Origin: Oscillospiraceae bacterium
Lineage (GTDB): Bacteria > Bacillota > Clostridia > Oscillospirales > SIG627
Length of the DNA stretch: 64,000 bases
NCBI GenBank assembly: GCA_015063605.1
Contig: SVTV01000002.1
Coordinates: forward strand, 1 to 64,000
Reading direction: 5' to 3'
In this document: one piece after another, positions 11,648-61,286 of the stretch
Layout of the letters: the number at the start of each line of letters is the position of its first letter
Position numbering within the stretch: the first letter of the stretch is position 1
Position numbers and translations under genes: made by a program
Notes under the pieces: model-generated
What the model was told of the DNA's origin: nothing
Databases searched by the model: none
Seen by the model: only the letters and a program-made list of their open reading frames with translations

Positions 11648-12361
11648 AGAACAATTCCTCAACATTTGCAGACCGTCGAGGACGCCGATCCATACAGTTG
11701 TGTCGGGATGTTCGCATCTGCGCAGCCGTGACGGAGGAATTGTTTTTAACTTTCACAACTCTGAGGCTCTCCCTGTGGGGACGAGCATGCAGTAATGCTG
11801 CGCATTACTGCTAAGAGGGTAAATGTGATACCTCTCTTGTAACCCTCTCTGCCATGACATTGTCATGGCATCTCCCCCATAGGGGGAGACTTTGGGTTGT
11901 TTTGAGAAAAAGGACAATTCCTCAGTCAGCCATACGGCTGACAGCTCCGCAGAAACGCTTGCGTTTCTGATTTACACTTAAAGGAGGAAGTTGTTTTGCG
12001 TTAAGAACAATTCCTCCGTCACGGCTACGCCGTGCCACCTCCTTTTACACAAAGGAGGCTTAAACGATCTAACTTCAAGTGAAAATTGATAAATTAGGGT
12101 TATATCTGACATAAATTATATGTGATTTAATAAAAATCTGCACAAACCAAAGGCTCCTTTAGGTGTAATGCAGATGCGAGCATCTGCGGAGCTGTCAGCC
12201 GTATGGCTGACTGAGGAATTGTTTTTGATAACTAATACTTACATCTAACCTCAAGTCAACGCAGTTCAATAGAGATCCGCACAAACCCATGCCTCCTTTG
12301 TGCAAAAGCAAGGTAGGCAGAAACGCAAACGTTTCTGCGGAGGAATCGTTCTTTACGTTAA
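11648..12361. repeat. Mosaic intergenic repeat cluster B (type II and type I units)
   Basis: Type I unit 12006-12223, type II about 11757-11910, further partial type I core and right arm to 12361. Confidence 0.85.
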
Positions 12362-23312: not shown

Positions 23313-24270
23313 GGATAATTCCTCTGCAGATGCAAGCATCTGCGGAGGTGGCACCGAAGGAATCAGTTGCTTCGCAACTGCGGAGGAATTGTACTTTTAC
23401 AATTACAACTCTGAGCCTCTCCCTGCGGGAGAGGTGGCACGGCGCAGCCGTGACGGAGAGGGCAAATAAGTTGTGGTGTTAACCCTTACTTTCAACCCTC
23501 TCTGCCATGACTTCGTCACGGCATCTCCCCCATAGGAGGAGACTTTGGGTTGTTTTGCGTTGAGGACAATTCCTCAGTCAGCCATACGGCTGACAGCTCC
23601 TTTTACACAAAGGAGCCTTATACATCTAACTTCAAGTAAAATTTGATAACTAATACTTATATCTGACTTGAAGTATACGCACTTCAACAAAAATCAGCAC
23701 AAACCCAAGCCTCCTTTGTGTAAAAGGAGGTGCCCCGAAGGGGCGGAGGAATTGTTTTTTTACTTAAAACAACCCATGCCTCCTTTAAGTGTAATGCAGA
23801 TGCAAGCATCTGCGGAGGTGCCCCGAAGGAATCAGTTGCTTCGCAACTGCGGAGGAATTGTTCTTTTACGTTGAGAACTCTGAGCCTCTCACTTTGGGAG
23901 AGGTGGCACGCTTTATGCGTGACGGAGAGGGCAAATAAGTTGGGCATCCCCCTTCTTTAAGCCCTTCTGCCTATCTCATCCCCATAGGAGGAGACTTTGG
24001 GTTGTTTTACGTTGAGTAACAATCCCCCACCGCCTGCGGCGGAGCCCCCTTTACACAAAGGGGCCTTATACATCTAACTTCAAGTAAAATTTGATAACTA
24101 ATACTTATATCTGACTTGAAGTATACGCACTTCAACAAAAATCAGCACAAACCAAAGGCCCCTTTGTGTAAAGGGGGCTGTCAGCGTTAGCTGACTGGGG
24201 GATTGTTCCTTTGCATTAACAAATTGAGCCTCTCCCTGCGGGAGGAGATTTTGGGTTGTTATAAGTTAAG
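23313..24270. repeat. Mosaic intergenic repeat cluster C
   Basis: Type I units 23573-23756 and 24018-24207; type II units about 23405-23562 and 23873-24015, truncated one about 24222-24268. Confidence 0.9.
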
Positions 24271-28078: not shown

Positions 28079-28188
28079 CGATGATGCTGTCGGATAAAAC
28101 CGATAGCGGAGAAAACTCCGGAGAATCCCGACAGACGGGTGCCGAAGGTGCAAGGCGAAAGCTGAATCTCTCAGGCAAAAGGACAGAG
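28079..28188 (+). promoter_or_regulatory. Glycine riboswitch (gcvT-type)
   Basis: GGTGCCGAAGGTGCAAGGC...GAATCTCTCAGGCAAAAGGACAGAG matches the conserved aptamer core; upstream of AGCS symporter. Confidence 0.93.
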
Positions 28189-28306
28189 TTATTTTTTTAT
28201 ATTACAAGCTGTTTTCTTTTTTTACGGAGTTGCCCTTTTGAGGCAGCTTTTTTGTTTTATAAAACAAAACGGGGGCAGAGCTCCCCGAAGAAGGAAGGTC
28301 ATTATT

Positions 28307-29689: not shown

Positions 29690-30991
29690 ATATAAGGGGC
29701 TGCTTGATGACAGCCCCTTAGCATTTAACGGAGATTTGAGTTGTTTTGCGTTGAGGACAATTCCTCAGTCAGCCATACGGCTGACAGCTCCTTTTACACA
29801 AAGGAGCCTTATACATCTAACTTCAAGTAAAAGTTGATAACTAATACTTATATCTGACTTGAAGTATACGCATTATAATAGAAATTAGCACAAACCCATG
29901 CCTCCTTTGTGTAAAAGGAGGTGCCCCGAAGGGGCGGAGGAATTGTCAATTGACAAATTAGGATTATATCTGACCTCAAGTCAACGTGATTCAATAGAGA
30001 TCCGCACAAACCCATGCCTCCTTTAAGTGTAATGCAGATGCAAAGCATCTGCGGAGGTGTCATTTTCGCAAGAAAATGACGGAGGAATTGTTCTTTTGCA
30101 TTAAGTAATTGAGCCTCTCCCTGCGGGAGGAGTAGGTAGAAACGCAAAGCGTTTCTACGGAGAGGGCAGAGAGAAGGCGTGGTGTTAGCCCTTACTTTCA
30201 ACCCTCTCTGCCATGACTTCGTCACGGCATCTCCCCCATGGGGGAGACTTTGAGTTGTTTTGAGAAAAGGACAATTCCTCAGTCACCTTCGGTGACAGCT
30301 CCTTTTACACAAAGGAGCCTTTGAGTTCTAACTTCGAGTAAATTTTGATAAATTAGGGTTATATCTGATCTCAAGTAAACGTGATTCAATAGAGATCCGC
30401 ACAAACCAATGCCTCCTTTAAGTGTAATGCAGATGCAAGCATCTGCGGAGGTGGCATGACGAAGCAATCAGATGCAAGCATCTGCGGAGGAATTGTTCTT
30501 TTGCTTTAACAACTCTGAGCCTCTCACTTTGGGAGAGGTGGCACGGCGGAGCCGTGACGGAGAGGGCAGATAAGTTGGGGCGTCCCCCTGCTATAAGCCC
30601 TTCTGCAGTTGTTTTACGTTGAGAACAATTCCTCAGTCAGCTAACGCTGACAGCTCCGCAGAAACGCTTGCGTTTCTGATTTACACCTAAAGGAGCCTTT
30701 AAGTTCTAACTTCAAGTAAAATTTGATAAATTGTAAGTATTTCTAACTTCAAGTAAAATATTGCAAATTATACTTATATCTTACTTTAAGTATACGCAGT
30801 TCAATAGAGTTTCGCACAAACCCATGCCTCCTTTAAGTGTAAGGCAGTTGCGAAGCAACTGATTCCTTCGCAGACAGCTCCGCAGATGCAAAGCATCTGC
30901 ATACAAGGGGAGCCTTTGGTTTGTGCGAGCTTCTATTGAATCACGTTGACTTGATGGTAGATATAAGTATAAGTTATCAAATGACAACCTC
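29690..30991. repeat. Mosaic intergenic repeat cluster D between convergent genes
   Basis: Type I units 29755-29946 and 30270-30498; type II units about 30105-30262 and 30508-30620; partial units to the stop codon at 30992. Confidence 0.9.
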
Positions 30992-38939: not shown

Positions 38940-39705
38940 TTGTTTAAAGTTAAGAACAATTCCTCCGCAGTTGCGAAGCAACTGATTCCTTCGGTGACAG
39001 CTCCGCAGAAACGCTTGCGTTTCTGATTGCATGGGAGGACAATTCCTCCGTCGCGGCTACGCCGTGCCACCTCCTTTTACACAAAGGAGGCTTAAATGAT
39101 CTAACTTCAAGTAAATTTTGATAAATTAGGGTTATATCTGACATCAAGTCAACATGATTCAATAGAGATTTGCACAAGCCAAAGCCTCCTTTGTGTAAAA
39201 GGAGGTGTCATTTTCGCAAGAAAATGACGGAGGAATTGTTCTTTGCGTTGAGTAACAATCCCCCACCGCCTGCGGCGGAATTGTTCTTTTGCGTTGAGTA
39301 ATTGAGGCTCCCCCTTTGGGGGAGCTGGCACGCCTTGTGCGCGACTGAGAGGGCGGAGAGAAGGTGTGGTGTTAGCCCTTACTTTAAGCCCTCTCTGCCA
39401 TGACTTCGTCACGGCATCTCCCCCATGGGGGGAGACTTTGAGTTGTTTTGCGTTGAGTAACAATCCCCCACCGCCTGCGGCGGAGCCCCCTTTACACAAA
39501 GGAGGCTTATTGATCTAACTTCAAGTAAATTTTGATAAATTAGGGTTATATCTGATCTCAAGTAAACGTGATTCAATAGAAATTTGCACAAACCAAAGGC
39601 TCCTTTAGGTGTAATGCAGATGCGAGCATCTGCGGAGCTGTCTGCGAAGCAATCAGATGCAAGCGTCTGCGGAGGAATTGTTCTTTACACAAAACAACTT
39701 AACAA
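38940..39705. repeat. Mosaic intergenic repeat cluster E
   Basis: Type I units 39039-39240 and 39459-39682; type II about 39298-39455. Confidence 0.9.
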
Positions 39706-41664: not shown

Positions 41665-42275
41665 GTTTTAAGAGGAGGACAATTCCTCAGTCAGCTAACG
41701 CTGACAGCTCCGCAGTTGCAACGCAACTGCCTTACACTTAAAGGAGCCTTTGGATTGTGCAGACTTCTATTGAAGTGCATATACTTCAAGTCAGATATAA
41801 TTACAATTTATAAGATTATACTTGAAATTAGCACTTATATGCCTCCTTTGTGTAAAAGGAGGTGGCATGACGAAGTCATGACGGAGGAATTGTTCTTTTG
41901 CGTTAAGTAATTGAGCCTCTCCCCGCGGGAGAGGTGGCACGGCGCAGCCGTGACGGAGAGGGCAAATAAGTTGGGGCGTCCCCCTGCTATAAGCCCTCTC
42001 TGCAGTAAGGGCGAAGCCCTTCTGCCTATCTCACCCCATGGGGGGAGACTTTGAGTTGATTTAAGAGGAGGACAATTCCTCAGTCACCTTCGGTGACAGC
42101 TCCTTTTACACAAAGGAGCCTTTGGTTTGTGCGGATTTCTATTGAAGTGCGTATACTTAAAGTCAGAAATAATTATAAGTTACTGAATTTTGCTTGAAGT
42201 TAGAACTATAAGCCTCCTTTGTGTAAAAGGAGGTGGCATGACGAAGTCATGACGGAGGAATTGTTCTTCTGCTTT
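41665..42275. repeat. Mosaic intergenic repeat cluster F
   Basis: Type I units 41679-41894 and 42071-42264; type II 41908-42062. Confidence 0.9.
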
Positions 42276-51605: not shown

Positions 51606-54035
51606 TTAATATTTGAATGTAACCTTGTTTACATTGACTCCGTTAAGGAAATAGAAGTTGCCGTAACCGTCGCCCACGTGGTACCAGCCTACATTTTCAA
51701 CAAGCATTTCAAGCTTATCGGAGGCTATATCGTATCTGTAGAAATCTCTTGTGGAGGCGCTGGAAATGAAGATACATGTTCCGTCGCCGCCGAGAGACAT
51801 CTTGATATCTCTCCATGTGGTATTGGAGCAAGCTATATCCACCTTCTTATTGTATACGAACTTTTCCGTTGAGGGATCGAAGCAGAAGAGGTTGTTCCAT
51901 CCCATACCCCATATCTTACCGTCTCTGTCTGTGCAAAGAGCAGTGATAGAACCTGCAGTGAAGGGAAGCTCATACTCTTTAAATTCCTTAGAATCCATGT
52001 TCATCTTCGCCAGAACTGCCTGCTTCTTTATTGCGGAGGTACCGTATCCCGCAGATACCGTTGTTCCCATATAAAGATCTCCGCCGGAATAAGCAAGGGA
52101 AGCGGCGCTCATATGCTCTATGGGGAACTTTGCGAAGTATTTAGCGGTATTGTTATTCGCATCAATAAACGCAAGCGAACCCGTTGTAAAGTTCTGTGCG
52201 GGAATAGATGCAACTACCATAATACCCTTTTCGTATACGGGCAGGAAATTATAAGGTCTGTCCTGATTGTGATATCCCGATACGGAGGTGTTTTTGCCCA
52301 TGTTGAGAACTGATTGATATGTGAAGGATGTTATGGAGGGAACTGCCTTGTGTATTACCGCATTCGGGTAAGAGCCTAAGAATACGTTGCTGCCGTAAGC
52401 GCATACGCCTTCCTGCTGTCCTATTCCTTCGTAAGTTTTCTTTATACCGGTGTCTATATCGTATATGCCGGTGCTGCCGCCGTAGCCGCCGCCGACGATG
52501 AGAAGATCGGAATCGGTTATGGTAAGGCAGTTGCCTTCGTTCATACCGCCGGAAATGTCGGTAAGAAGCGATGTGACCTTTTTATTTGTAAAGTTTACAA
52601 ACTGAGTGCTGCCCTTATGGCTGTAAAGGCTGACTGCGGAGTATCCGGGATACTTTTTCTGATCGAGCTTCAGAAGGACCATACGTATCATCTGTGTATT
52701 CGCGGGAATATCGGTGATCTTGTATGTCATTGTCTTTGTATCAAAGAGAGCTATCTTGTTATCGAGAACGCTGTAGAATCTTGTATCGTCCTCGGGATCG
52801 ATGGAGGGCTGGCGGACATATGTCTTCATGGGCCACTTTGCTCCTGTTTTACCCTCCTGATTGAAGGCTACAAGCTTATCTTCTCTTATGTTGAAGAAAA
52901 GTGTTTCTTGAGTGGAAGGATAGCGGATGAAGAGTATGTCGCCGCAGACCATCATATCATAGAACTGATACTTTGCATTATTCTTATATTCTTCGGGAGT
53001 AATGTCCTTTATCTTTCTCGTTTCAAGATCTACTCTGAAAAGGTAATTCTTGGAATCTTTTGTTATAACGGAAACGTAAAGATCGTTTTCCTTCTTATCA
53101 TACGCTACTGCCGGATATCTTGTAGCGTTGCTTTTCAGCGAAGGCATTGTGAAGAGCTTTCCGGTAGAGGGATTGTATCCCCAATAATATCCGGAGTCGG
53201 TGGAACCCGAATATACCGTTCCGTCCGCAGTTTCGCACATTACCTGTCCCAAAGAGGAGCCTCCGGGAAGTGCACCTATTTCTTTTATTTCTTCCGTCTC
53301 ATGGTCGAAAATGTAAAAATAAGGCTTACCGTGAGCTACTATATATACGTCCTTGGAGGAATGAACGAATACCTCCCATGCACCTGAGCTGTGCTTCAAT
53401 TCCTTTTCAAGAATTATCTTGCCCGTTTCGGCATTGAGCATAACGAAAAGTGCAATGGGGTTTCCGTCAGAAACGGTATAGAGAACGGGAGTGCCGTCCT
53501 TTCTGTAGCCGCCGCCGTTCATTCTCAGGTATATTGTTCTTGTAAGGTTTCCTAAATTCTCAACCTCGTATTTTGTGTCTTTAGTGGGGGTGGGAACGAT
53601 ATCGGTGTAATTACATACCTTGCATACATTTCCGCCGTTTTCAAAGGTGTGTCCCATGTTTTGTGTTTTTCCGCAATTCACACAGGAGTGCTTATGCGAC
53701 TTTTTCGTTGTTTCCCATTCGGAATAAATATGTCCCAATGCGGGAATGGCTTCGGATTCCTGGAACACCTCGCCGCAAAGTGAACATTTACTGCCTGCGG
53801 TTGCGCCTTTTTTAACACACGTGGGCTCAAACGCTTCCGTTTCCACTATAACGTGGCCCGCAGGAATGACTTCTTTTGTATTTTTGCCGCAAAGAGAGCA
53901 GGTGCCTTCTCTTTCGCCGCTTTCGGTACATGTTGCCGCCTTCAGAACTGTCCAGTCGTATTCATGCTCGCATCCGCAGGACGCAAGAAGCATGAGACAA
54001 GCAGCGAAGACCGCAAGTAACATTATCTTTTTCAT
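51606..54035 (-). CDS. Beta-propeller-like lipoprotein paralog 1
   Basis: Lipobox LLASC; CxxC repeats ATCTESGEREGTCSLCGK...IPALGH; propeller-like repeats; long identity blocks shared with the next two. Confidence 0.8.
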   Translation of the reverse strand: MKKIMLLAVFAACLMLLASCGCEHEYDWTVLKAATCTESGEREGTCSLCGKNTKEVIPAGHVIVETEAFEPTCVKKGATAGSKCSLCGEVFQESEAIPALGHIYSEWETTKKSHKHSCVNCGKTQNMGHTFENGGNVCKVCNYTDIVPTPTKDTKYEVENLGNLTRTIYLRMNGGGYRKDGTPVLYTVSDGNPIALFVMLNAETGKIILEKELKHSSGAWEVFVHSSKDVYIVAHGKPYFYIFDHETEEIKEIGALPGGSSLGQVMCETADGTVYSGSTDSGYYWGYNPSTGKLFTMPSLKSNATRYPAVAYDKKENDLYVSVITKDSKNYLFRVDLETRKIKDITPEEYKNNAKYQFYDMMVCGDILFIRYPSTQETLFFNIREDKLVAFNQEGKTGAKWPMKTYVRQPSIDPEDDTRFYSVLDNKIALFDTKTMTYKITDIPANTQMIRMVLLKLDQKKYPGYSAVSLYSHKGSTQFVNFTNKKVTSLLTDISGGMNEGNCLTITDSDLLIVGGGYGGSTGIYDIDTGIKKTYEGIGQQEGVCAYGSNVFLGSYPNAVIHKAVPSITSFTYQSVLNMGKNTSVSGYHNQDRPYNFLPVYEKGIMVVASIPAQNFTTGSLAFIDANNNTAKYFAKFPIEHMSAASLAYSGGDLYMGTTVSAGYGTSAIKKQAVLAKMNMDSKEFKEYELPFTAGSITALCTDRDGKIWGMGWNNLFCFDPSTEKFVYNKKVDIACSNTTWRDIKMSLGGDGTCIFISSASTRDFYRYDIASDKLEMLVENVGWYHVGDGYGNFYFLNGVNVNKVTFKY

Positions 54036-54149
54036 TATTTAATTTTTCCTTTCGATCGCTTCTTCACGATTCTTTATTTCGGCTTCTTTATATTTTACAT
54101 TATTCCGAGTATTATGTCAAGGGTAAAATGAAAACGACGGGGAATAAAA

Positions 54150-54510
54150 GTTGTTTTATGTTGAGAACAATTCCTCCGCAGTTGCATCGCAACTGATTTA
54201 CACAAGGAAGAAAGTTGTTTTGCGTTTAGAACAATTCCTCCGTCATGACTTCGTCATGCCACCTCCTTTTACACAAAGGAGGCTTTGGTTTGTGCGGATT
54301 TTTATTGAATCACGTTGACTTTAAGTCAGATATATGTTTAAGTTATCAAATTTCACTTGAAGTTAGCACTCATAAGCCTCCTTTGTGTAAAAGGAGGTGG
54401 CACGGCGGAGCCGTGACAGAGGAATTGTTTTTTACGTTAACAACTCTGAGGCTCCCCCGGCATACACGGGCGATTCGTGGATCGACCCTACCGAAGGGTG
54501 TATAATTCAT
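54150..54510. repeat. Mosaic intergenic repeat cluster G
   Basis: Type I unit 54230-54430 plus partial arms between paralogs 1 and 2. Confidence 0.88.
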
Positions 54511-54512
54511 TT

Positions 54513-56942
54513 TCAATACTCAAATGTCACCTTATTGACATTCGTGCCGTTGATGAAATAGAAATTACCCTCCTTATCACTTGTGTGGAGTGATCCCACA
54601 CCCTCGGCGATGAGATCGAATTCCTTTGTTATAAGGTCAAATCTGTATAAATTCTTTGTATATACTCCCGATATAAATACACAAGTGCCGTCACCGCCGA
54701 GAGTCATCTTCAGATCTCTCCAGCCGCCGTTATTGCAATTTATATCAAGCTTCTTTGAAAATTCGAATTTTTCCGTTTTCGGGTCGAAGCAGAATATATT
54801 GTTCCAAGCCATGCCCCATATCTTGCCGTTGTCATCGGTGCACATGGTAAGAATGCCGCGGACCGTAAAGGGAAGATCGTATTTCTTCACCTCTTTCGTA
54901 TCCACATCCATGGAAATGAGGAGTGCCTGATAGGCACGGGCTGACGTACCGCTTCCCGCGGCTACCGTTGTACCCATGAAAAGTTTTCCGTCGGAATATG
55001 CCAGGGAAGCCGCACTCATATGCTCCACGGGGAATTTGGCATGATATGCCGTAACACCCGTTCTGCCGTCGATAAGAGCTATTGCGCCCGTGGTAAAGCC
55101 CTTAGCGGGGATAGTAGCCACCGCCATCAAGCCCTTTTCGTATATGGGCAGGAAATTATACGGTCTGTCCTGATTGTGATATCCCGATATGGAAGCTGCC
55201 TTGCCCATGTTAAGTAACGGGGAATGCTTTATTGAGGATGCATCCGTATCTATCATGGAAAGCTGTGCCGTGGGATAAGAGCCGAAAAACACCTTATTTC
55301 CGAAAGCACAAGTGCCCTCCTGCTGACCGATACCGCTGTAAAAGGATCTTTCACCCGTCTTGATATTGTAAAAGCCCGTACCGCCGCCGTAATTACCGCC
55401 GATAACGAGAATTCCCGAATCGGTGACGGTAAGGCAGTTGCCTTCGTTTTTGCCGCCATGTACCTTTGTGGTAATGGAAACGTGCTTTTTGTTTTTGATA
55501 TTTACAAACTGTATCTTTCCCAAATGACTTTGGAGACCGCATACGGAATATCCCGGATGCTTTTTCTGATCCAGCTTCAGCATGACCATCTTTATCATCT
55601 GCACCGGTCCCGGAACGGATGTTATCTTATATGTCATGGTCTTCGTATCGAAAAGGGTGAGCTTGCTGTCAACGACCGAATAGAATCTTGTATCGTCTTC
55701 GGGATCTGCGGCGGGAGTTCTGCAATATGTCAGCATAGGCCATTTTGCCCCTGTCTTGCCCTCTTGGTTAAAGCCCATAAGCTTGTTTTCTCTTATATTG
55801 AAGAAGATCGTTTCGGAGGTGGAAGGATATCGGATCATAAGTATATCACCGAATACCATCATATCGTAAAATTGGAATTTCGGTTTGTTTTTATATTCCT
55901 TGGGAGTTATATCCTCCTTCTTTTTCGTATCGGGGTCAACTCTGAAAAGATAATTTTTCGAATCCTTGGAAAAAACAGCAACATAAAGCTTATTTTCCTT
56001 CTTATCGTATGCTATGGAATGGCTTGCCGCATCCAATACAAGATATGGCATATCCGTTATGAACTTACCCGTTTTGGGGTCATATCCCCAGAAATAAAGA
56101 GACTCTGTAGAACCGGAAAAGATCCTTCCGTCATTCGTTTCGCACATTCCCGTGCCGAGAGAAGAACCGTGGGGCAATTCGCCTATGGGAATGATCTCCT
56201 CCGTTTTATTGTCGAATCTGTAAAAATAAGGCGCCCCGTGACCGCTTATATAAACGTCGCCCGAGGAATGGGTGAATACGCCCCATGCTCCGCTGCTCTT
56301 TTCAAGCTCTTTTTCAAGGAGTATTTCTCCCGTCTCTGCGTGAAGCATTATGAAAAGCGCCTTCGGATTTCCGTCGGAGACAGTATATATTACGGGCGTA
56401 CCGTCGTTTCTGTAGCCGCCGTCATTGACTCTGAGATAAATTGTTCTTGTAAAGTTACCGAGATCTGTGACGGTATATTTTGTATCCTTGGTGGGAGTGG
56501 GAATTATTACCTTGTAACCGCAATCGGTACATTCCTTTTCGCCGCTTGGGATATTATGCTTACTCTTCTGTGTCTTTCCACATCCCGTACAAACTCTCTG
56601 ATGCTTTTCGGTATCGATTTCCCACTCTGTGTAGATATGTCCCAATGCGGGAATTGCTTCTGATTCTTGGAACACCTCACCGCAGAGAGAACAATGTCTG
56701 CCCTCTGTCCTGCCCTTTGTAAGACACGCAGGCTCAACAGCCTCATCAATCACCTCAACGTGCCCTGCGGGAATGGTTTCGGTGATTTTTCCGCCGCATT
56801 CCGTGCATACGCCTTCTCTTTCACCGCTTTCGGTACATGTTGCCGCCTTCAGAATATTCCATTCATATGTGTGCTCGCAGTTACATGATGCAAGAAGCAG
56901 GAGACAAGCAGTGAATAACATGAGCAGCATTGATTTTCTCAT
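54513..56942 (-). CDS. Beta-propeller-like lipoprotein paralog 2
   Basis: Same architecture as 51606-54035. Confidence 0.8.
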   Translation of the reverse strand: MRKSMLLMLFTACLLLLASCNCEHTYEWNILKAATCTESGEREGVCTECGGKITETIPAGHVEVIDEAVEPACLTKGRTEGRHCSLCGEVFQESEAIPALGHIYTEWEIDTEKHQRVCTGCGKTQKSKHNIPSGEKECTDCGYKVIIPTPTKDTKYTVTDLGNFTRTIYLRVNDGGYRNDGTPVIYTVSDGNPKALFIMLHAETGEILLEKELEKSSGAWGVFTHSSGDVYISGHGAPYFYRFDNKTEEIIPIGELPHGSSLGTGMCETNDGRIFSGSTESLYFWGYDPKTGKFITDMPYLVLDAASHSIAYDKKENKLYVAVFSKDSKNYLFRVDPDTKKKEDITPKEYKNKPKFQFYDMMVFGDILMIRYPSTSETIFFNIRENKLMGFNQEGKTGAKWPMLTYCRTPAADPEDDTRFYSVVDSKLTLFDTKTMTYKITSVPGPVQMIKMVMLKLDQKKHPGYSVCGLQSHLGKIQFVNIKNKKHVSITTKVHGGKNEGNCLTVTDSGILVIGGNYGGGTGFYNIKTGERSFYSGIGQQEGTCAFGNKVFFGSYPTAQLSMIDTDASSIKHSPLLNMGKAASISGYHNQDRPYNFLPIYEKGLMAVATIPAKGFTTGAIALIDGRTGVTAYHAKFPVEHMSAASLAYSDGKLFMGTTVAAGSGTSARAYQALLISMDVDTKEVKKYDLPFTVRGILTMCTDDNGKIWGMAWNNIFCFDPKTEKFEFSKKLDINCNNGGWRDLKMTLGGDGTCVFISGVYTKNLYRFDLITKEFDLIAEGVGSLHTSDKEGNFYFINGTNVNKVTFEY

Positions 56943-56964
56943 AGTGTGGTTTTCCTTTCAAATT

Positions 56965-57420
56965 ATTGTTTCTTTACTTTAACAACTCTGAGCCTCTCAC
57001 TTTGGGAGAGGTGGCACGGCGGAGCCGTGACGGAGAGGGCAGATAAGTTGGGGCGTCCCCCTGCTTTCAACCCTCTCTGCAGCAAGGTCGAAGCCCTTCT
57101 GCCTATCTCACCCCATGGGAGGAGACCTGAGTTGTTTTGAGAAAAAGGACAATTCCTCAGTCAGCCATACGGCTGACAGCTCCTTTTACACAAAGGAGCC
57201 TTTGGTTTGTGCGGATTTCTATTGAAGTGCGTATACTTAAAGTCAGAAATAATTATAAGTTACTGAATTTTGCTTGAAGTTAGAACTATAAGCCTCCTTT
57301 GTGTAAAAGGAGGTGGCATGACGAAGTCATGACGGAGGAATTGTCATTTGGATAATTTATACTTATATCTGACTTAAAGTTTACGCAATTCAATAGAGAT
57401 TTGCACAAACCATGCCTCCG
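56965..57420. repeat. Mosaic intergenic repeat cluster H
   Basis: Type II about 56980-57140, type I 57149-57344, then partial core up to the stop codon of paralog 3. Confidence 0.9.
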
Positions 57421-57422
57421 TT

Positions 57423-59945
57423 TCAATACTCAAACGATAACTTCTTCACATTCATTCCGCTGATGAAATAGAAATTGCCGAATTTATCCGCAACGTGGTT
57501 CCAGCCCACATTTTCAGCCAATATATCTACCTTTTTCGATGTAAGATCGAATCTGTAAAATGCTCTCGAGGAGGAACTTGAGATCAATATGCACGATCCG
57601 TCTCCGCCCAAGGTCATGCGGAGGTTGCGCCAATCGCCGTTGGAGGCGCTGACAGATATCTTTTCACTGTAAATGAATTTGCTCGTTTTGGGATCGAAGC
57701 AAAACATGGTGTTTGACGCCATTCCCCATATTTTTCCGTCATTGTCGGTGACAAGTGCGGTAACAGCCGCCGAGGCTGCGGGAAGGTCGTATACCTTTAC
57801 GGAATGATCGTCAAGATCCATTTCCACAAATTTTGCCCTCGATGTTTTATTTGCCGTACCGTAGCCGACTCTGACAGTGGTACCCATGTAAAGCTTACCG
57901 TTTGAATAAGCAAGGGAAGCGGCACTCTGGTGCTCAACGGGGAATTTGCATGTATATTTCAATGTATCCGTCTTTGCATCGAATATGGCAATAGCACCCG
58001 TGGTGAAATTCTGTGCGGGTATGGTCGCCGCAACGAGAAGCTCCTTTTCGTATATCGACAGTAAATTATACGGTCTGTCCTGATTGTCATAGTCCTCTAT
58101 CTCTTTGTTCTTCGCCATTGTCAGAAGAAGATTGTGTACGGGGGCTTTGAGATCGGGAATGAGGCTTCTGATCCTCGCCTCCGGATATGATCCTACATAC
58201 ACCTTATTCTTATAGGCTGTCATGCCCTCCTGCTGGCTTATGCCTTCGAAGGTGGTCTTTTCTCCCGTAACGATATCGTATATTCCCGTGCTTCCGCCGT
58301 AATTTCCGCCCACCACAAGCTTTCCGTCGTCGGTAACCGCAAGACAGTTGGCGTCGTTGGGGCTTCCCGATACATTCGTATCGAGAATCACACTTTCGCC
58401 CGTATCAAAGTTGGAAAACTGTATCTTTCCCTTGTGGCTGTATATACTGCACGCCGAATAGCCCGTATACTTGTCGGAATTCAATTTCAGCATGACCATG
58501 CGTATCATATAATTGTTGGGTGCATCCGTATTCGTTACCTTGTATGTGAGCGTTTCCGTATCGAACAAGGCTATCTTATTTTCCATTATGCTGTAAAAGC
58601 GTTTGCTGTTTTCGGGATCTCTTGCAGGCTGTCTGCAATATGTGATAAGCTCCCCGGTGCCGCCCGTTTCACCCTCTTTATTGAAGGTAACAAGCTCATT
58701 TGTACGGATATTGAGGAAAATAGTCTTGAGAGTTGAAGGGTATCGGATGAAAAGGATATCACCGAACACTATCATATCGTAAAACTGGAAGCTTGCATCG
58801 TTTCTGTACTTCTCGGGAGTTACATCCACGGCTTCCTTCGTGTGGGGGTCTACCTTGAAAAGGTAATTTTTCGAATCCTTCGATATTACGGAAACGTATA
58901 TTTTGTCTTCCTTTTCATCGTATGCCACAGCGGGATATCTTGTGGCATTGGGAACAAGAGCGGGAATACCGATGAATCTGTCCTTTGCGGGATCGTATCC
59001 CCAGAATCTGTTTGTATCCGTCGATCCCGAGAAAAGATATCCGTCCTTTGTCTCGCACATTACCTGACCCATGGATGAGCCGTGAGGCAATGCGGATATT
59101 TCGGTGATACGCTCCGTTTCGTGATCGAATTTATAGAAATATGGGCTTCCGTGTCCCACGATAAATACGTCGCCCGAGGAATGTACGAAGGATTCCCATG
59201 CGCCTGTGCTCTTTTTCAGCTCTCTTTCAAGAAGTATTTCACCCGTGAGAGCATCCATCATAACGAAAAGGGCGTAAGGCTTTCCGTCGGTTACAAAGTA
59301 AAGCACGGGAGTGCCGTCCTTTCTGTAGCCGCCGCCGTTCATTCTTATGTATATTGTCTTTGTAAGGTTGCCCAAATCCTCCACTTTCGGTGTCATTCCC
59401 GCCGCAGGTGTGGGAACGGTATAATCTTCCTTGAATACCGCCTTACATACGGAGCAAAAGCCTCCGTCGGCAAGAAGAGTGTGGCTTCCCTCCTCCTTCT
59501 TTCCGCAGGTATTACAAGTTCTCGTATGAGCCTTATCGGATACGTTCCATGCACCGTAGGAGTGACCCTTTGCGGGAACGGATTTCTGAGTTACTGTGAC
59601 CTTTTTGCATACCTCGCAATGACGTCCCGCGGAAAGTCCCTCTTCATCGCAGGTGGGAGCTTTGGGCTTATCCTCCACCTCTTTATGTCCCGGCGCGGAA
59701 ATTATCTCCGATTCCGTTTCGCCGCAGGAGCACACTCTTTGTCTTTTCCCGTCAATGGTACAGTTTCCGGTCTTCACCGTTTCCCACTCACCGAAGGAGT
59801 GAACGTGCTCTGCCGTTCCCGCGGATGTCCCCTCGGTTGCAGCGGAAGCCGTTTCGTTTCCCGTAACGGGAGTTTCATTTCCCGTGCATGAGAATAAAAT
59901 AAAAGCCGCCAGAATTAAGGGTATCAGGATGTAAAGCTTTTTCAT
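57423..59945 (-). CDS. Beta-propeller-like lipoprotein paralog 3
   Basis: 840 aa, lipobox LFSC, same CxxC and propeller architecture. Confidence 0.8.
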   Translation of the reverse strand: MKKLYILIPLILAAFILFSCTGNETPVTGNETASAATEGTSAGTAEHVHSFGEWETVKTGNCTIDGKRQRVCSCGETESEIISAPGHKEVEDKPKAPTCDEEGLSAGRHCEVCKKVTVTQKSVPAKGHSYGAWNVSDKAHTRTCNTCGKKEEGSHTLLADGGFCSVCKAVFKEDYTVPTPAAGMTPKVEDLGNLTKTIYIRMNGGGYRKDGTPVLYFVTDGKPYALFVMMDALTGEILLERELKKSTGAWESFVHSSGDVFIVGHGSPYFYKFDHETERITEISALPHGSSMGQVMCETKDGYLFSGSTDTNRFWGYDPAKDRFIGIPALVPNATRYPAVAYDEKEDKIYVSVISKDSKNYLFKVDPHTKEAVDVTPEKYRNDASFQFYDMIVFGDILFIRYPSTLKTIFLNIRTNELVTFNKEGETGGTGELITYCRQPARDPENSKRFYSIMENKIALFDTETLTYKVTNTDAPNNYMIRMVMLKLNSDKYTGYSACSIYSHKGKIQFSNFDTGESVILDTNVSGSPNDANCLAVTDDGKLVVGGNYGGSTGIYDIVTGEKTTFEGISQQEGMTAYKNKVYVGSYPEARIRSLIPDLKAPVHNLLLTMAKNKEIEDYDNQDRPYNLLSIYEKELLVAATIPAQNFTTGAIAIFDAKTDTLKYTCKFPVEHQSAASLAYSNGKLYMGTTVRVGYGTANKTSRAKFVEMDLDDHSVKVYDLPAASAAVTALVTDNDGKIWGMASNTMFCFDPKTSKFIYSEKISVSASNGDWRNLRMTLGGDGSCILISSSSSRAFYRFDLTSKKVDILAENVGWNHVADKFGNFYFISGMNVKKLSFEY

Positions 59946-60923: not shown

Positions 60924-61286
60924 GAGTTGTATAATGTTAAGGACAATTCCTCAGCAGTAAGAGCGAAGCTCGTCTGCGTACCTCCCTTTAGCAAAGGAGA
61001 CGTAAAGTTGATTTACGTTAAGAAACAATTCCTCCGTCATGACTTCGTCATGCCACCTCCTTTTACACAAAGGAGGCTTTGTACTACAGATTTGTTACTT
61101 TATACATAAAGTTATGGTTTGTAATACCTTGAAGTTTTATTGATGTGTTCGCACATTAAGGCTCCTTTGTGTAAAAGGAGCTGTCATTTTCGTAAGAAAA
61201 TGACTGAGGAATTGTTCTTTTGCGTTAACAAATTAAGCCTCTCCCCCATAGGGGGAGACTTTGAGTTGTATAATGTTAAGGACAAT
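60924..61286. repeat. Mosaic intergenic repeat cluster I with 24-bp direct repeats at its edges
   Basis: Type I unit 61024-61217 with divergent core; GAGTTGTATAATGTTAAGGACAAT at 60924-60947 and 61263-61286. Confidence 0.9.

What the first reader, a model, noticed from the sequence alone, without database searches (positions are those of the whole stretch)
23313..24270. Family of modular intergenic elements with interchangeable small palindromes in conserved inverted arms
Seen directly: nine intergenic clusters (A 87-135, B 11648-12361, C 23313-24270, D 29690-30991, E 38940-39705, F 41665-42275, G 54150-54510, H 56965-57420, I 60924-61286) are built from the same parts. A complete type I unit reads AACAATTCCTC-[palindrome]-CTCCTTTTACACAAAGGAG-core of about 90-110 bp-CTCCTTTGTGTAAAAGGAG-[palindrome]-GAGGAATTGTT. 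I count 12 near-complete units: 12006-12223, 23573-23756, 24018-24207, 29755-29946, 30270-30498, 39039-39240, 39459-39682, 41679-41894, 42071-42264, 54230-54430, 57149-57344, 61024-61217. The slot holds at least 11 palindromes: ATGACGAAGTCAT, CACGGCGCAGCCGTG, CATTTTCGCAAGAAAATG, CCCCGAAGGGG, CAGTTGCGAAGCAACTG, CAGATGCAAGCATCTG, AGAAACGCAAGCGTTTCT, CAGCCGTATGGCTG, CAGCTAACGCTG, CACCTTCGGTG, CCGCCTGCGGCGG. Inference: a non-autonomous, MITE- or REP-like family in which foldable cassettes are swapped within a fixed frame. I cannot match it to a named family.
Basis: partly seen in the sequence, partly recalled or inferred. Interest (0 to 1): 0.85.

Follow-up and report, generated by a model that had tools for sequence, protein, structure and literature searches.

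The report
Palindrome-armed endonuclease mobile elements
The repeated DNA clusters between genes in this gut Clostridia genome look like gene-less copies of a tiny mobile element whose full version is one nuclease gene (DUF559) held between two swappable hairpin arms, and similar gene-in-hairpins arrangements occur in distant bacteria, which points to a mobility enzyme for repeats that had none.

Summary
In detail: all 12 units are in the window, and 37 occur in 387 kb of the genome sampled. Their slot palindromes swap independently of the core: two cores are 100% identical while both slots differ.

The arm (hairpin, slot hairpin, GGAGG) occurs in 132/397 genomes of the host's order, with different palindromes in each. 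The key finding is that the same arms bracket a DUF559 gene, a Vsr/homing-endonuclease-fold nuclease. An arm lies beside 54/76 independently found DUF559 genes, against 6/545 control windows. The upstream arm carries the ribosome-binding site and the downstream arm encodes the stop codon. Arm type follows the DUF559 tree. The host has a frameshifted copy cut off by a contig end.

Slot loops are C-GNA-G or C-GNNA-G on one strand only (77/115 against 1/115), with hypervariable stems. This is the class of exceptionally stable DNA mini-hairpins. DUF559 genes in Deinococcus, alphaproteobacteria and viral contigs are also bracketed by inverted repeats, with occupied and empty sites in Deinococcus.

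Best reading: non-autonomous copies of a DUF559-mobilised palindromic element. That DUF559 moves them is inferred, not shown.

The parts
12007..12222 (.). type I unit (arm-core-arm); slots CGTCACGGCTACGCCGTGCCA / AGTCAGCCATACGGCTGACA
23566..23755 (.). type I unit; slots AGTCAGCCATACGGCTGACA / CGCCCCTTCGGGGCA; core identical to the 24019 unit
24019..24206 (.). type I unit; slots ACCGCCTGCGGCGGA / AGTCAGCTAACGCTGACA; same core as 23566, both slots different
29757..29946 (.). type I unit; near copy of L033:1756-1945 on another contig
30271..30496 (.). type I unit; right slot half replaced by a GCAGATGCTTGCATCTG insert
39039..39239 (.). type I unit
39460..39681 (.). type I unit with GCAG..CTG inserts
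41679..41893 (.). type I unit
42072..42264 (.). type I unit; core identical to the 57149 unit, different left slot
54231..54428 (.). type I unit
57149..57344 (.). type I unit
61025..61215 (.). type I unit
23413..23549 (+). type II unit (arm-spacer-arm, the orientation of the gene-bearing form, without the gene)
   Evidence: compare the gene-bearing loci L095, L105, L179
23882..24001 (+). type II unit, right arm degenerate
11763..11896 (+). type II unit
30111..30254 (+). type II unit; slot hairpin AGAAACGCAAAGCGTTTCT
39304..39442 (+). type II unit
41913..42055 (+). type II unit
56990..57131 (+). type II unit
23313..24270 (.). cluster C: alternating type I and type II units and fragments between two minus-strand genes

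Best explanation
The clusters are arrays of gene-less copies and fragments of a small mobile element. Its complete form is about 450-575 bp: one gene for a DUF559 (Vsr/PD-(D/E)XK-fold) endonuclease between two inverted double-hairpin arms. Each arm is hairpin 1 (CCTCC..GGAGG), then a slot hairpin, then GGAGG(G)ATTGT or a family variant. The upstream arm supplies the gene's ribosome-binding site; the downstream arm encodes the protein's last residues and stop codon and looks like a terminator. Shown: this anatomy, its recurrence beside DUF559 genes, the matching of arm type to DUF559 clade, the dispersal, and the independence of slots from cores. Inferred: the endonuclease recognises the arm as folded single-stranded DNA or a cruciform through the constant C-GNA-G / C-GNNA-G loop, so stems may vary freely. 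It nicks or cuts DNA, and the element (with or without the gene) is copied in during repair, as homing endonucleases do. Repair between arms that share only the frame swaps the slot, which produces the interchangeable palindromes.
For: Arms and DUF559 found together: order-wide 80/132 arm-bearing against 42/265 arm-less genomes (odds ratio 8.2, p 3e-19). An arm adjoins 54/76 DUF559 genes found by protein search alone, against 6/545 control windows and 0/152 shuffles. A motif-free inverted-repeat test gives 33/76 against 0/137 control pairs. Physical fusion..GACGGAGGGATTGTA-ATG..QSLSQLR-stop encoded by CAATCCCTCAGTCAGCTTCGCTGA inside the arm. Arm type follows the DUF559 tree: 7 changes against 20.0 shuffled, 0/200. 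The host carries a frameshifted type-I DUF559 copy directly after an arm, running off contig C37. Mobility: copies with nearly the same inside have different flanks on both sides. A gene-less copy sits between phage scaffold and capsid genes, where most relatives have only a short gap. Deinococcus has occupied and empty orthologous sites. Slot exchange: identical cores with different slots. Loops: G..A 77/115 against T..C 1/115; control hairpins 83 against 78 of 833. The same loop class is the known extraordinarily stable DNA mini-hairpin (PMC4686876). Nuclease fold: PDB 3hrl, homing endonuclease I-Bth0305I (3r3p), Vsr.
Against: No base-exact empty site and no consistent target-site duplication was established for gene-bearing copies. 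52 of 132 arm-bearing genomes show no DUF559 gene, and 22/76 DUF559 genes show no arm by the strict detector. Cleavage by DUF559 is not demonstrated here, and another DUF559 protein (Caulobacter VsrA) is read as a mismatch-repair endonuclease (PMC12907096). In the host the L-core-R layout is inside-out relative to the gene-bearing form and needs extra rearrangement. Nearest-neighbour DNA energies favour the arm strand only weakly (78 against 51 of 145). The genome association is not corrected for phylogeny.
Confidence: 0.6

Rival explanations
1. DUF559 is a passenger: the arms are mobile by another host or phage enzyme, and small nuclease genes are simply tolerated or favoured inside them, as cargo, a repair gene or a defence gene.
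For: Some arm-rich genomes lack DUF559 (8 of 34 with at least 10 arms). A GIY-YIG nuclease gene sits between sufB and sufC in one Azospirillum, where a Sphingomonas has DUF559. A Caulobacter DUF559 protein is read as Vsr-like repair (PMC12907096).
Against: Arm type and DUF559 clade are matched. The gene has no room of its own: ribosome-binding site and stop codon lie in the arms. The association recurs in distant phyla. No other gene was seen regularly between the arms.
Confidence: 0.2
2. Ordinary MITEs moved in trans by a DDE transposase with matching ends.
For: Terminal inverted repeats, intergenic dispersal, many gene-less copies. One single-arm insertion is flanked by an 8-11 bp direct repeat (L217).
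Against: No consistent target-site duplication in gene-bearing copies with sharp ends. Stem sequences change freely between species while the loop stays, which a double-strand-binding DDE transposase would not allow. No DDE gene was seen between the arms.
Confidence: 0.08
3. REP/BIME-type repeats moved by a Y1 (HUH) transposase (RAYT).
For: Short hairpins, single-strand-specific loop, head-to-head and tail-to-tail pairs, one candidate enzyme gene per genome.
Against: The only Y1 gene in the host is an IS200 TnpA with no arms near it. Y1 presence does not track arms (p 0.35). No GTAG tag.
Confidence: 0.05
4. Not mobile: conserved RNA regulatory leaders, terminators or attenuators duplicated by ordinary recombination, with the SD/anti-SD pairing (CCTCC with either GGAGG) acting as a switch.
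For: The arm carries a ribosome-binding site and a terminator-like end. CCTCC can pair with either of two GGAGG.
Against: No Rfam family. Units sit between unrelated genes in either orientation. The tetraloops are about half non-GNRA (GTTA, GTCA, GACA, GATA), which fits DNA rather than RNA preferences. Occupied and empty orthologous sites exist.
Confidence: 0.07

Closest known systems
REP/BIME elements with RAYT (TnpA-REP) transposases
   Same: Short hairpins in many intergenic copies, often in opposed pairs; one cognate single-copy gene flanked by the repeats; hairpin read on one strand (PMC2817692, PMC3116915, PMC8266576)
   Different: Enzyme is DUF559, a PD-(D/E)XK-like nuclease, not a Y1 HUH transposase; double-hairpin arms with a hypervariable stem; no GTAG tag
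CGTC-tagged REPs (Di Nocera 2013, PMC3733652; includes Neisseria dRS3 and Rickettsia RPEs)
   Same: Palindrome with a CGTC (TGTC, CCTC) tag at one end and a CCA-like tail; here slots read CGTC-[hairpin]-GCCA, AGTC or TGTC. That paper says these REPs lack a dedicated transposase
   Different: Described in Proteobacteria, Chlorobi, Bacteroidetes, Spirochaetes and Thermotogae, no Clostridia; no first hairpin described; kinship to the arms here not tested
EDxHD/Vsr-fold homing endonucleases (I-Bth0305I, PDB 3r3p)
   Same: Same fold and detectable sequence similarity; small selfish nuclease gene
   Different: I-Bth0305I belongs to an intron; DUF559 elements are free-standing with hairpin arms and leave gene-less copies
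GC clusters and double-hairpin elements of fungal mitochondria (PMC4478555)
   Same: Mobile palindromes that merge and shuffle into new forms
   Different: No linked nuclease gene reported there; organellar
MITEs
   Same: Inverted ends, gene-less, dispersed
   Different: No consistent duplication, no DDE partner, changeable hairpins

Membership tests
REP/RAYT | High-copy short palindromes, mostly intergenic | tested here: met
   67 hairpin-1 hits and 81 frame hits in 2.67 Mb
REP/RAYT | Y1 transposase gene flanked by the repeats | tested here: not met
   Single IS200 TnpA, no arm within 1.3 kb; no association
REP/RAYT | GTAG tag | tested here: not met
   Slot tags are CGTC, AGTC or TGTC
CGTC-tagged REP | CGTC(-like) tag and CCA tail around an 8-9 bp stem | tested here: inconclusive
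   CGTC..GCCA present in one of two main slot types; stems 4-8 bp, loops 3-4
MITE (DDE) | Terminal inverted repeats | tested here: met
MITE (DDE) | Target-site duplication | tested here: inconclusive
   None at sharp ends of 13 gene-bearing copies; one 8-11 bp repeat at a single-arm insertion
MITE (DDE) | Cognate DDE transposase | not tested
   No DDE family was searched genome-wide
Homing endonuclease element | Nuclease of a homing-endonuclease fold inside the element | tested here: met
   DUF559 model matches 3r3p (TM 0.80 on target, E 7.5e-4), 3hrl, Vsr
Homing endonuclease element | Occupied and empty orthologous sites | tested here: met
   Deinococcus hpaB/oxidoreductase junction: 3 species occupied, 3 empty; phage scaffold/capsid gap
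Homing endonuclease element | Enzyme cuts the empty site and is copied in by repair | not testable with these tools
   needs biochemistry
Rfam RNA family | Match at gathering score | tested here: not met
IS200/IS605 | TnpA between the ends | tested here: not met
   Ends bracket DUF559, not TnpA

The most novel reading that the evidence does not exclude
DUF559 proteins are the mobility enzymes of a pan-bacterial class of palindromic repeats, possibly including the CGTC-type REPs that have no known transposase. The class moves by structure-guided (stable DNA mini-hairpin) nicking and repair-copying rather than by a transposase, and hairpin cassettes are exchanged by the same process.
Probability: 0.4. 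Interest if true: 0.95.

Novelty: new variant of a known kind. Interest (0 to 1): 0.85.

Why it matters
DUF559 is still listed as 'protein of unknown function' in Pfam although it occurs in many phyla, and a large share of intergenic palindromic repeats has no known mobility enzyme; PMC3733652 says so outright for CGTC REPs. Here one gene family and one repeat class are tied together by position, by fused gene signals and by matched subtypes. This makes both questions testable with a 120-residue protein and a 55-base hairpin. The loop rule (C-GNA-G / C-GNNA-G, any stem) predicts structure recognition. If right, it also accounts for repeats that probably contribute to broken assemblies of gut Clostridia (the host's own DUF559 copy is cut by a contig end).

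Tried and rejected
Rfam at gathering and at permissive threshold: only chance hits. Literature on Clostridia repeats and on DUF559 with repeats or palindromes: nothing relevant. Similar DNA in plasmids: none; in the phage collection only short arm matches in unannotated faecal contigs. Y1/RAYT as partner: rejected. Exact empty site of the phage L218 insertion: pattern scan found none; relatives show only the short gap. Genus-level empty-site search: a locus cannot be the centre. RNA or DNA energy as proof of strand choice: inconclusive. Enterotoxin entries in the PDB list are weak chance hits. Strong PADLOC membership: none, only weak nuclease-domain hits.

Full report
What is there. The window is G000:C34:1-64000 of a 2.67-Mb, 61-contig draft genome. 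Named relatives of the DUF559 gene tied to the repeats are mostly gut Clostridia/Oscillospiraceae MAGs; the host itself is unnamed. The nine intergenic clusters and the 12 type I units are real. The arm hairpin is found 67 times genome-wide (1 in the reversed control) and the slot frame GGAG-N-TG-N-CA..TGAC-N-GAGG 81 times (0 in the control). A type I arm folds as two adjacent hairpins (DNA, z about -5.7). Type II units alternate with type I.

Slots move independently of their unit. In 37 arm-core-arm units from 387 kb, pairs with cores at least 85% identical (41 pairs) share the left slot in 7 and the right slot in 10. Units 23566 and 24019 have identical cores and different slots at both ends. 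Paralogous copies at like positions (L043, L045, L049, L051) differ in slots while core and flanks are kept.

The family is order-wide. The frame is present in 132/397 genomes of the order (80/168 genera), with reverse-pattern controls near zero. Outside the order it falls to chance level, with one exception. Palindromes differ from species to species.

The gene. Pairs of arms about 383 bp apart enclose an ORF that is Pfam DUF559. Of 76 DUF559 genes found by protein search alone, 54 have an arm beside the start or stop by a strict detector, against 6/545 control windows and 0/152 shuffles. A motif-free inverted-repeat test gives 33/76 against 0/137 control pairs. Gene and arms are fused: the arm's GGAGG is the Shine-Dalgarno sequence of the ORF, and in subfamily A the ORF ends QSLSQLR-stop within the downstream arm. 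Arm type changes 7 times on the DUF559 tree against 20 expected. Across the order, DUF559 and arms co-occur (odds ratio 8.2, p 3e-19, not phylogeny-corrected). The host has one recognisable copy, type I, frameshifted and cut by the contig end, directly after an arm.

The loop. In arm orientation, slot loops of 3-4 nt are G..A in 77/115 distinct slots outside the own genome (T..C 1/115) and 20/26 inside it. The closing pair is C-G in 108/124. Control hairpins in the same loci are symmetric, 83 against 78 of 833. GNA and GNNA loops with N = any base are the loops of extraordinarily stable DNA mini-hairpins (PMC4686876). Stems are hypervariable (64 distinct among 124). I infer that loop and hairpin, not stem sequence, are what is recognised, on the strand that reads inward from each end. 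Energy models support this only weakly.

Enzyme. The AlphaFold model (pLDDT 88.6) matches 3hrl, the I-Bth0305I homing endonuclease catalytic domain and Vsr; the sequence profile gives the first two.

Mobility. Nearly identical 445-575 bp copies have different flanks on both sides in different genomes. A gene-less copy lies between scaffold and capsid genes of a phage contig, where most of 80 relatives have only a short gap. In Deinococcus, three species carry a DUF559 element between hpaB and an oxidoreductase gene while D. radiodurans, D. deserti and D. ficus do not. D. wulumuqiensis has a copy with half the gene deleted and two slot-like palindromes that D. proteolyticus lacks.

Beyond Clostridia. 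7 of 12 named DUF559 genes on replicons of Deinococcota, Proteobacteria and Cyanobacteria, and 7 of 16 in other viral contigs, have flanking inverted repeats above the 99th percentile of shuffles. Those repeats are of other sequence families. CGTC-tagged REPs are reported to lack a transposase (PMC3733652), and the slots here carry a CGTC-like tag. Kinship is a lead, not a test.

Mechanism, step by step. Shown: anatomy, association, dispersal, slot exchange, loop rule. Inferred: DUF559 nicks at or near arms or targets; repair copies the element; gene-less copies arise by internal deletion and move in trans; mismatched repair between frames swaps slots.

Noticed in passing
L350 (Azospirillum lipoferum AZO_p3) against L342 (Sphingomonas): A GIY-YIG nuclease gene sits between sufB and sufC in one and DUF559 in the other: another small nuclease may use the same kind of niche.
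   Followed up: partly
L217, L224, L231: A single arm lies inside the first hairpin of another arm, flanked by the direct repeat CCCCCCTTGCC (8-11 bp): a possible target duplication.
   Followed up: partly
all arms: Frame letters X and Y in GGAG-X..Y-GAGG are locked as (C,T) or (G,G), although they cannot pair with each other; unexplained.
   Followed up: partly
L112-L117, L318, L319: Subfamily-A elements carry a shared 3' extension of about 125 bp with further hairpins and a sharp end.
   Followed up: partly
window 30111-30254, 30271-30496, 39460-39681 and elsewhere: GCAG..CTG(C) hairpins are inserted after CTCC in hairpin 1 or in place of half a slot: a second, smaller mobile palindrome class.
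   Followed up: partly
window 51606-59945: Three consecutive genes of 809, 809 and 840 aa without a Pfam match, possibly paralogues (not compared), with repeat clusters between them.
   Followed up: no
window 28108-28196: Glycine riboswitch aptamer.
   Followed up: no
G712 (other class, same phylum): 12 palindromic arms outside the order: probable horizontal transfer.
   Followed up: no
L340 (E. coli), L336 (S. meliloti): CCCTCACCC..AACCCTCTCCC-type repeats, present around or downstream of DUF559 genes here, may belong to the same class.
   Followed up: partly
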